DNA of 39,747 nucleotides. It comes from Candidatus Anaerotruncus excrementipullorum. GTDB taxonomy: Bacteria > Bacillota > Clostridia > Oscillospirales > Ruminococcaceae. The stretch lies in the NCBI GenBank assembly GCA_019114825.1, contig DXES01000033.1, positions 1 to 39,747 on the forward strand, given 5' to 3'. Shown here piece by piece: positions 8,557-25,768 of the stretch. Under the pieces are notes generated by a model. That model did not search any database. It worked only from the letters and a program-made list of their open reading frames with translations, and was not told where the DNA came from. A program made the position numbers and the translations under genes. Positions within the stretch are counted from its first letter, which is position 1. Each line of letters begins with the position of its first letter.

Positions 8557-8596
8557 AAAAAGGCGCTTTTCGCCCCTCTCTGGGACGAAAAGCGCC
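8557..8596 (-). terminator. T-box intrinsic terminator
   Basis: Minus strand GGCGCTTTTCGTCCC...GGGGCGAAAAGCGCCTTTTT. Confidence 0.9.
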
Positions 8597-8795
8597 AACT
8601 TTCCGCGGTACCACCCAAATTGCGCGGGAAACTCCCGCGCCGCTCGCCAGGAATAACGCTCACACCGCGTCCGGCTCCTCGCCGGAAGGCTCCGGGATGG
8701 CCCCCATCGGTTTCCACGGCGGCTTTCAGCCAAGGCCGCCTCTCTTGGGAGGAAAACCGAAGGTTCTTTCCCTTCATCGCCCACTGTAACAGTAG
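8557..8795 (-). promoter_or_regulatory. T-box leader of alaS
   Basis: Minus strand carries TGGGTGGTACCGCGGAA (8602-8617), AGAGAGGCGG stem I element, antiterminator region, then terminator at 8562-8596. Confidence 0.93.
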
Positions 8796-24492: not shown

Positions 24493-24867
24493 ATGCAGAT
24501 TCATGAATCCGCAGAGGACTATCTGGAGGCCATCCTGGCCATCAAGGAGGAAAAAGGGCTGGTCCGTTCGGTGGATGTGGCCCAGCGGCTGGGGGTCTCC
24601 AAGCCCAGCGTCAGCCGGGCCATGGGGTTATTGCGGGAAAACGGCTACATCACCATGGGCCGGGAGGGCTGGCTGGAACTGACCCCCGCCGGCTATGAGA
24701 TCGCCGACCGCATCTATGAGCGGCACCGGATTCTCTCCCGCTGGCTGGCCAGCCTGGGGGTGCCGGAGGAGGTGGCCGCCCAGGACGCCTGCCGGATGGA
24801 GCACGACATCAGCGCCATCACCTTCCAGCGGTTGAAGGAGCATATCCTCGCCAATTCCCAGGGGTGA
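24493..24867 (+). CDS. DtxR/MntR family metal-dependent transcriptional regulator
   Basis: ESAEDYLEAILAIKEEKGLVRSVDVAQRLGVSKPSVSRAM and metal-ligand helix DACRMEHDIS. Confidence 0.93.
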   Translation: MQIHESAEDYLEAILAIKEEKGLVRSVDVAQRLGVSKPSVSRAMGLLRENGYITMGREGWLELTPAGYEIADRIYERHRILSRWLASLGVPEEVAAQDACRMEHDISAITFQRLKEHILANSQG

Positions 24868-24885: not shown

Positions 24886-24943
24886 TTGACAGTTTGGTTA
24901 GCGTATGCTAATATATGGGTGAGTTAGTAATAACTAACTCACC
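24886..24943 (+). promoter_or_regulatory. Promoter 1 with two palindromic operator-like sites
   Basis: TTGACA-17-TAATAT; TTAGCGTATGCTAA (24898-24911) inside the spacer/-10; GGTGAGTTAGT-AATA-ACTAACTCACC (24918-24943). Confidence 0.85.
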
Positions 24944-25098
24944 GGGCGCCCCGGCCGATGGCCACAGGCCGGAGCCCTTCCCTGCAAGACATTCTCACTG
25001 CCATGGGAACGGTACCCAAACACGCAAGCCCACAGCCGTCCGCAACAGCGGCTGTGGGCGTCCTCCTGCCCTGGAGGACTGCTTAGGAGGAACGCAAC

Positions 25099-25503
25099 AT
25101 GTGTCTCAATGCTTTGGCGCGCTATCTGCTGGCGGTTTACCAGCTGAGTGCGGACGGCGCCGCAGTGCGTTCGGTGGAGATTGCCAACGCCCTGGGGGTC
25201 AGCCGCGCCAGTGTGGTGAAGAGCTTGAAAAAATTGGCCGAGGGGGGCTTTGTGCAAAAGGAATATTACGGCAGCGTGCATCTCACGCCCCAGGGACTCC
25301 GGGAGGCCGGGCGGCTGCACAGGGAGTACACCCTGCTGAGCTCCTACTTCACCAGCTGCCTGGCCTGTCCAAAGGCCGCCGCCGAAAAGGATGCCCTCTG
25401 CGCCCTCTGCCGGTTTTCGCCGGAGAGCAAGGAGCAGATGATCCGGCTGGCCCAGGCCCAGGCGGGGAAATCTTTTTTTCCGAAAAAGCAAAATACCCCT
25501 TGA
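25099..25503 (+). CDS. Divergent DtxR-like wHTH protein with C-terminal four-cysteine motif
   Basis: LARYLLAVYQLSADGAAVRSVEIANALGVSRASVVKSLKKLAEGGFV matches the DtxR wHTH; canonical ligand helix replaced by CLAC-X10-CALC; AGGAGG upstream. Confidence 0.8.
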   Translation: MCLNALARYLLAVYQLSADGAAVRSVEIANALGVSRASVVKSLKKLAEGGFVQKEYYGSVHLTPQGLREAGRLHREYTLLSSYFTSCLACPKAAAEKDALCALCRFSPESKEQMIRLAQAQAGKSFFPKKQNTP

Positions 25504-25554
25504 CTTTTCAGTTAGCATATGCTAATATATGTTCATGAGTTAGTTTAAACTAAC
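25500..25554 (+). promoter_or_regulatory. Promoter 2 with the same two-palindrome layout as promoter 1
   Basis: TTGACT-17-TAATAT; perfect TTAGCATATGCTAA (25512-25525); perfect GTTAGTTTAAACTAAC (25539-25554). Confidence 0.85.
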
Positions 25555-25710
25555 CAAAGAGAACCGACACCTCATTCTCCATCCCGTTGGGATGTCCCAC
25601 CCAGCAAAGGGACCTCCCACCCTCTAAATTTGCCTGACTTCTTCAAAATACTTCTTTCATGTCCGTATCCCTGGGCAAAAGGCCGGAAGCAATTCCGGCC
25701 TTTTGCCTTG
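25535..25710 (+). ncRNA. Candidate metal-responsive small RNA
   Basis: Promoter 2 upstream, strong terminator at the end, no substantial ORF, C-rich tracts; predicted only. Confidence 0.5.
25675..25706 (+). terminator. Intrinsic terminator
   Basis: GCAAAAGGCCGG-AAGCAATT-CCGGCCTTTTGC. Confidence 0.85.
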
Positions 25711-25739
25711 GTAAATTTCCCTTTCCCCCTTTGCCGCCC

Positions 25740-25768
25740 TTGAAAACCGCCCGTTTTTTGTCTATAAT
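25740..25768 (+). promoter_or_regulatory. Sigma-A-like promoter of the NitT/TauT-type ABC operon
   Basis: TTGAAA - 17 nt - TATAAT. Confidence 0.75.

What the first reader, a model, noticed from the sequence alone, without database searches (positions are those of the whole stretch)
25535..25710. Candidate metal-responsive small RNA with anti-Shine-Dalgarno C-rich tracts
Seen directly: promoter 2 (TTGACT-17-TAATAT) carries two palindromes and is followed by about 170 nt with no ORF longer than a short 11-codon frame, then a strong terminator (25675-25706). The next ABC operon has its own promoter (TTGAAA-17-TATAAT at 25740-25768), so this unit looks self-contained. It contains GUCCCACCCAGC and ACCUCCCACCCUCU (around 25594-25625), the latter complementary to GGGUGGGAGGU-type ribosome sites; a small stem CATCCC-GTT-GGGATG sits at 25580-25594. 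Established knowledge: B. subtilis FsrA and S. aureus IsrR are iron-regulated sRNAs that act through C-rich single-stranded motifs. Inference: this is an analogous, unannotated metal-sparing sRNA controlled by a DtxR-type regulator.
Basis: partly seen in the sequence, partly recalled or inferred. Interest (0 to 1): 0.72.

Follow-up and report, generated by a model that had tools for sequence, protein, structure and literature searches.

The report
Iron-repressed small RNA candidate, Anaerotruncus-like bacterium

Summary
The described unit is real: a sigma-70-type promoter (25500-25528), two DtxR-type palindromes (25511-25526, 25539-25554; 0.01 sites expected per window by chance), no credible ORF, a strong hairpin terminator (25674-25707) and a separate downstream promoter. 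The same palindrome lies in front of feoA, feoB and flavodoxin genes in the genus, so it marks an iron regulon. Only one other genome has the unit, a sister Anaerotruncus MAG, with the same order and length. There a 40-nt stretch just before the terminator is identical, although fourfold-degenerate sites of flanking genes are only 38-54% identical, and the terminator stem carries a compensatory change. I judge an iron-starvation-induced small RNA most likely. The C-tract argument is weak: only CCTCCC is shared, and it is predicted paired in both species; the conserved pyrimidine-rich, mostly unpaired block is the likelier pairing region. A small target test on Fe-S genes was negative. The sister promoter P1, 600 bp upstream, transcribes a separate covarying hairpin with a UCCUCCU tail: ten copies, found only in this genus, each downstream of a DtxR-type palindrome. 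Function remains inferred; there are no expression data. New member of a known kind (IsrR, FsrA, MrsI), not homologous to them.

The parts
24493..24867 (+). DtxR-family metal-dependent repressor gene (124 aa), the likely regulator
   Evidence: Pfam Fe_dep_repress 4.9e-14 and Fe_dep_repr_C 7.2e-16
24886..24914 (+). promoter P1 (TTGACA-17-TAATAT) with DtxR-type palindrome 24897-24912; a second palindrome GAGTTAGTAATAACTAACTC is read at 24921-24940
   Evidence: conserved in sister species
25025..25067 (+). R1 element in the P1 leader: 11-bp hairpin, conserved loop UCCGCAA(A)CA, tail UCCUCCU
   Evidence: ten strong copies in the genus, stem covaries, each downstream of a DtxR-type palindrome
25099..25503 (+). 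short DtxR-like protein (134 aa; N-terminal DNA-binding domain matched, metal/dimer domain not detected)
   Evidence: Pfam Fe_dep_repress 2.9e-10 only; 55% identical relative at another locus in the sister species
25500..25528 (+). promoter P2 (TTGACT-17-TAATAT) of the candidate sRNA
   Evidence: conserved in L005/L099
25511..25526 (+). DtxR-type operator 1, overlapping the -10 region
25539..25554 (+). DtxR-type operator 2, just downstream of the expected start
   Evidence: palindromic in the sister species with a different centre
25535..25711 (+). candidate small RNA, about 175 nt (start inferred from the promoter)
   Evidence: no credible ORF, fold z -5.9, same order and start-to-block distance in the sister species
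25594..25625 (+).
25635..25674 (+). 40-nt block identical in the sister species, pyrimidine-rich, mostly unpaired: likely functional core
25674..25707 (+). intrinsic terminator hairpin of the candidate sRNA, compensatory G-C to A-U change in the sister species
25740..25768 (+). promoter P3 (TTGAAA-17-TATAAT) of the downstream ABC operon
   Evidence: conserved in L099
25803..28266 (+). ABC transporter operon (substrate-binding protein, permease, ATPase), substrate unknown
   Evidence: Pfam

Best explanation
The region is an independent small-RNA gene repressed by an iron-loaded DtxR-type protein, probably the one encoded just upstream. When iron is scarce the repressor leaves the two operators, P2 fires, and a terminated RNA of about 175 nt accumulates. 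It most likely acts in trans by base-pairing with mRNAs through the 40-nt conserved, mostly unpaired pyrimidine-rich block before the terminator, with the CCUCCC tract as a possible accessory site, so as to reprogramme translation under iron limitation. Shown: anatomy, operator family and its iron-gene company, conservation in one sister species. Inferred: transcription, iron response, trans action, targets.
For: Promoter and operators present far above chance. The same box precedes feoA, feoB and DUF3793-flavodoxin genes, a DtxR-like gene and a gene beside dtxR in the genus. The sister species keeps promoter, paired operators, start-to-block distance (block begins at position 102 in both) and terminator with a compensatory change. 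The 40-nt identical run compares with 38-54% identity at fourfold sites in four neighbouring genes; the longest run in 20,000 simulations was 25. No coding match. The downstream operon has its own conserved promoter. Known parallels: IsrR has two Fur boxes, C-rich regions and a terminator (PMC9410917); MrsI has a site for IdeR, a DtxR-family regulator, near its start (PMC11188477).
Against: Only two genomes carry it; none was found in the other genus members, 398 family genomes, 67 substrate-binding-protein loci or viral contigs. No expression data. A limited target test on Fe-S gene starts gave no convincing signal, and the best conserved candidate (a ferredoxin-domain hydrogenase-like mRNA) was no better than for shuffled sRNA (P = 0.21) and equally good in relatives that lack the sRNA. 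C tracts are mostly not conserved.
Confidence: 0.55

Rival explanations
1. P2 is a second, DtxR-controlled promoter of the ABC operon and the noncoding stretch is its leader; the hairpin is a conditional attenuator, and the conserved block is the sensor or antiterminator part.
For: The unit lies directly upstream of the operon in both species; strongly conserved leaders next to terminators are typical of attenuators.
Against: The operon has its own conserved near-consensus promoter after the hairpin; no mutually exclusive antiterminator is evident in the folds; no Rfam riboswitch match; more distant family members have the operon without the unit.
Confidence: 0.17
2. The conserved block is a DNA site or upstream element for regulation of P3, and the P2 RNA itself has no function.
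For: The block lies 65-105 bp upstream of the P3 -35 element and only two species are available.
Against: It is 40 nt long without palindromic symmetry; P2, both operators and the terminator would not need to be kept, and the compensatory change in the terminator stem speaks for RNA.
Confidence: 0.12
3. Remnant of a decayed iron gene (for example feoA) whose DtxR promoter and terminator survive.
For: DtxR-box promoters in the genus usually precede protein genes.
Against: No Pfam match in the two small frames tested; in the sister species too the unit is noncoding, of equal length, and shares a block of 40 identical bases, which decay would not leave.
Confidence: 0.05
4. A short peptide gene or dual-function RNA (37-codon frame from 25659).
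For: The ATG of the frame lies in the conserved block.
Against: No ribosome site by eye; the frame runs through the terminator, changes at non-synonymous sites between species and has no Pfam match.
Confidence: 0.04

Closest known systems
IsrR (Staphylococcus, Fur-regulated iron-sparing sRNA; PMC9410917)
   Same: About the same layout: promoter with two metal-repressor boxes, small hairpins, C-rich stretches, intrinsic terminator, presence limited to one genus.
   Different: DtxR-type instead of Fur operators; IsrR is kept across its genus and keeps its C-rich regions, while this RNA is in two species and keeps a U/C-rich block instead; no known targets.
MrsI (Mycobacterium, IdeR-regulated iron-sparing sRNA; PMC11188477)
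   Same: Control by a DtxR-family iron repressor near the transcription start; intrinsic terminator.
   Different: Unrelated lineage; MrsI is about 100 nt with a 6-8 nt seed and defined targets (bfrA, fprA).
FsrA (Bacillus subtilis, Fur-regulated, 84 nt; PMC12871923)
   Different: Different regulator, about half the length, no Rfam hit in the window, action not shown here.

Membership tests
Iron-starvation-induced trans-acting sRNA (functional class: RyhB, FsrA, IsrR, MrsI) | iron-repressor operator at the promoter | tested here: met
   two DtxR-type palindromes over P2, family shared with feo and flavodoxin genes; binding itself not tested
Iron-starvation-induced trans-acting sRNA (functional class: RyhB, FsrA, IsrR, MrsI) | self-contained noncoding transcript with terminator | tested here: met
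   transcript itself not observed
Iron-starvation-induced trans-acting sRNA (functional class: RyhB, FsrA, IsrR, MrsI) | pairs with and represses mRNAs of iron-using proteins | tested here: inconclusive
   16 Fe-S-motif gene starts against 120 others: no consistent signal; best candidate not better than shuffles
Iron-starvation-induced trans-acting sRNA (functional class: RyhB, FsrA, IsrR, MrsI) | RNA level rises under iron limitation | not testable with these tools
   needs RNA data
IsrR / FsrA (homology) | sequence and structure match | tested here: inconclusive
   no Rfam match above threshold in the window and no relevant weak match, but whether both families are in this Rfam copy was not checked
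IsrR-type C-rich-region RNA | conserved, single-stranded C-rich regions | tested here: not met
   only CCTCCC shared with the sister species and predicted paired in both
R1 element (this work) | hairpin with CCGCAAAC-like loop and UCCUCCU tail | tested here: not met
   P2 RNA does not match model R1; only the P1 leader does

The most novel reading that the evidence does not exclude
The locus carries two neighbouring DtxR-controlled RNAs of different ancestry that both set a hairpin before a CCUCC anti-Shine-Dalgarno tract: the P2 RNA and the P1-borne R1 module. R1 is a genus-specific RNA module copied onto several iron-regulon transcripts (leader of a DtxR-like gene, 3' UTR of flavodoxin, free-standing), which could turn ordinary iron-starvation mRNAs into sources of a shared translation-blocking RNA.
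Probability: 0.25. Interest if true: 0.62.

Novelty: new member of a known kind. Interest (0 to 1): 0.45.

Why it matters
Iron-sparing small RNAs are known from Proteobacteria, Bacilli and Mycobacteria. A DtxR-controlled one in anaerobic gut Clostridia, whose metabolism leans heavily on iron-sulfur enzymes, would extend the principle to a lineage for which a brief literature search here found none described. The R1 module, if functional, would show one RNA element spread over several transcripts of the same regulon.

Tried and rejected
Rfam at gathering and relaxed thresholds: only a distant T-box in the window. Homologues of the conserved block in 398 family genomes: only 17- to 24-mers; those inspected lie in what look like protein genes (KKYFE-type codons, antisense). 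67 loci of the substrate-binding protein in named genomes: only the sister MAG has the block. Exact scan of viral contigs: none. P2 RNA as a member of the R1 family: rejected. Weak family-wide R1 hits: those inspected look like ordinary terminators. Targets: a hydrogenase-like mRNA with a tempting 8+3+6 bp match in both species was rejected because dinucleotide-shuffled sRNA does as well (P = 0.21) and relatives without the sRNA give equal energies. Peptide and feoA-remnant readings: no support.

Full report
What the window is. The window is contig C143 of a 79% complete MAG. The closest genome with the same locus is G010 = CAJFPF010000052.1, an uncultured Anaerotruncus sp. MAG, whose flanking proteins are 81-88% identical. 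The neighbourhood reads dtxR (24493-24867), P1, short DtxR-like gene (25099-25503), P2, noncoding stretch, hairpin, P3, ABC operon.

Observation. The region has three promoter-like sites against 0.4 expected. The palindrome GTTAGYNNRNRCTAAY occurs four times in the window (one site counted on both strands) against 0.01 expected, all over P1 and P2. Two points need correction: 37-codon frames overlap the terminator, and the C-rich tract is partly paired in the predicted fold.

Operator identity. In five genomes of the genus the same palindrome lies in front of feoA (L079, Pfam FeoA 6.7e-20), feoB (L093, read by eye), a DUF3793-flavodoxin operon (L080, L086, L095), short DtxR-like genes (L081/L084, L094), a DUF2325 gene next to dtxR (L090) and, in the window's own genome, a Fur-family gene followed by rubrerythrin (L082). 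Flavodoxin and feo genes are classical iron-limitation genes (general knowledge), so P2 is very probably iron-controlled, although binding was not tested and DtxR proteins can also sense manganese.

Conservation. In the sister species the P2 unit lies in the same place and has the same order: promoter, palindromic pair, small hairpin, CCTCCC, 40-nt block, terminator, P3. The 40 nt before the terminator are identical. Fourfold-degenerate sites in four neighbouring genes are only 38-54% identical, and in 20,000 simulated alignments with 55% identity the longest run was 25. One terminator pair changes from G-C to A-U. The distance from the expected start to the block is unchanged (position 102 in both). 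The block is mostly unpaired in both predicted folds (0.70), whereas CCTCCC is mostly paired (0.25 and 0.17). So the part under selection is the block, not the C tracts. More distant relatives have the ABC operon without the unit, and no homologue of the block was found elsewhere.

Coding potential. Two 37-codon frames have no Pfam match, change at non-synonymous sites between the two species and run through the terminator.

Targets. I collected 136 gene starts from both genomes, 16 of them with Fe-S motifs. Duplex energies did not separate iron genes from the rest in the window's genome (p 0.44-0.99), and did so only marginally in the sister genome (p 0.03-0.07, uncorrected). Gene starts were called by a rough script, and false starts in G+C-rich DNA add noise. 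A hydrogenase-like mRNA with a match around its ribosome site in both species failed controls. Target function is therefore open.

The neighbouring P1 transcript. A BLAST search with the P1 leader found a recurring element: an 11-bp hairpin with the loop UCCGCAAACA and the tail UCCUCCU. A model of it (R1) finds ten strong copies, all in seven genomes of this genus, and in the family sample only weak hits outside it, which on inspection look like terminators. The stem pairs in 110 of 110 cells, with five pairs changed on both sides (0 of 500 shuffles reach that). Each of the ten copies lies downstream of a DtxR-type palindrome: the leader of the short DtxR-like gene (window, G008, G009, and G001 where it also follows flavodoxin), the 3' region of flavodoxin (G010 twice in tandem, G008), or a noncoding stretch (G010 P1, G003, G004). 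In some copies a T run follows, so a terminator role is possible, but the conserved loop and tail suggest more. P2 RNA is not a member of R1, yet both set a hairpin before a CCUCC tract.

Comparison. The layout is closest to IsrR: two repressor boxes, hairpins, C-rich stretches and a terminator, limited to one genus (PMC9410917). The closest regulatory parallel is MrsI, with a site for IdeR, a DtxR-family protein, near its start (PMC11188477). FsrA is a shorter, Fur-controlled RNA (PMC12871923). It works like them by inference; homology is not supported by any match found here.

Verdict. A DtxR-controlled independent small RNA is the best reading; that such a discrete RNA exists I put near 0.75, and the full trans-acting statement at 0.55. 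The specific iron-sparing, anti-Shine-Dalgarno mechanism is plausible but not shown.

Noticed in passing
25025-25067, and L173, L195, L200, L178, L194, L180, L181, L207: R1: genus-specific covarying hairpin with conserved loop and UCCUCCU tail on DtxR-box transcripts; ten strong copies.
   Followed up: yes
24985-25025 and relatives: A second small hairpin (GGGGAA...TTCCCC type) precedes R1 in most copies and seems to vary in a compensatory way; judged by eye only.
   Followed up: partly
25099-25503: Short DtxR-like paralogue in which the metal-binding/dimerisation domain is not detected, itself behind a DtxR box; possibly a modifier of the full-length repressor. In the sister species it sits at another locus.
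   Followed up: partly
8578-8786 (- strand): T-box leader, Rfam RF00230, 99.8 bits.
   Followed up: no
L082 (own genome, contig C114): DtxR-type palindrome upstream of a Fur-family regulator and rubrerythrin.
   Followed up: no
L178 and L194 (G003, G004): In these genomes R1 and a DtxR box stand a few hundred bases upstream of what reads as a serine recombinase gene, so the element may sit beside a mobile element there.
   Followed up: no
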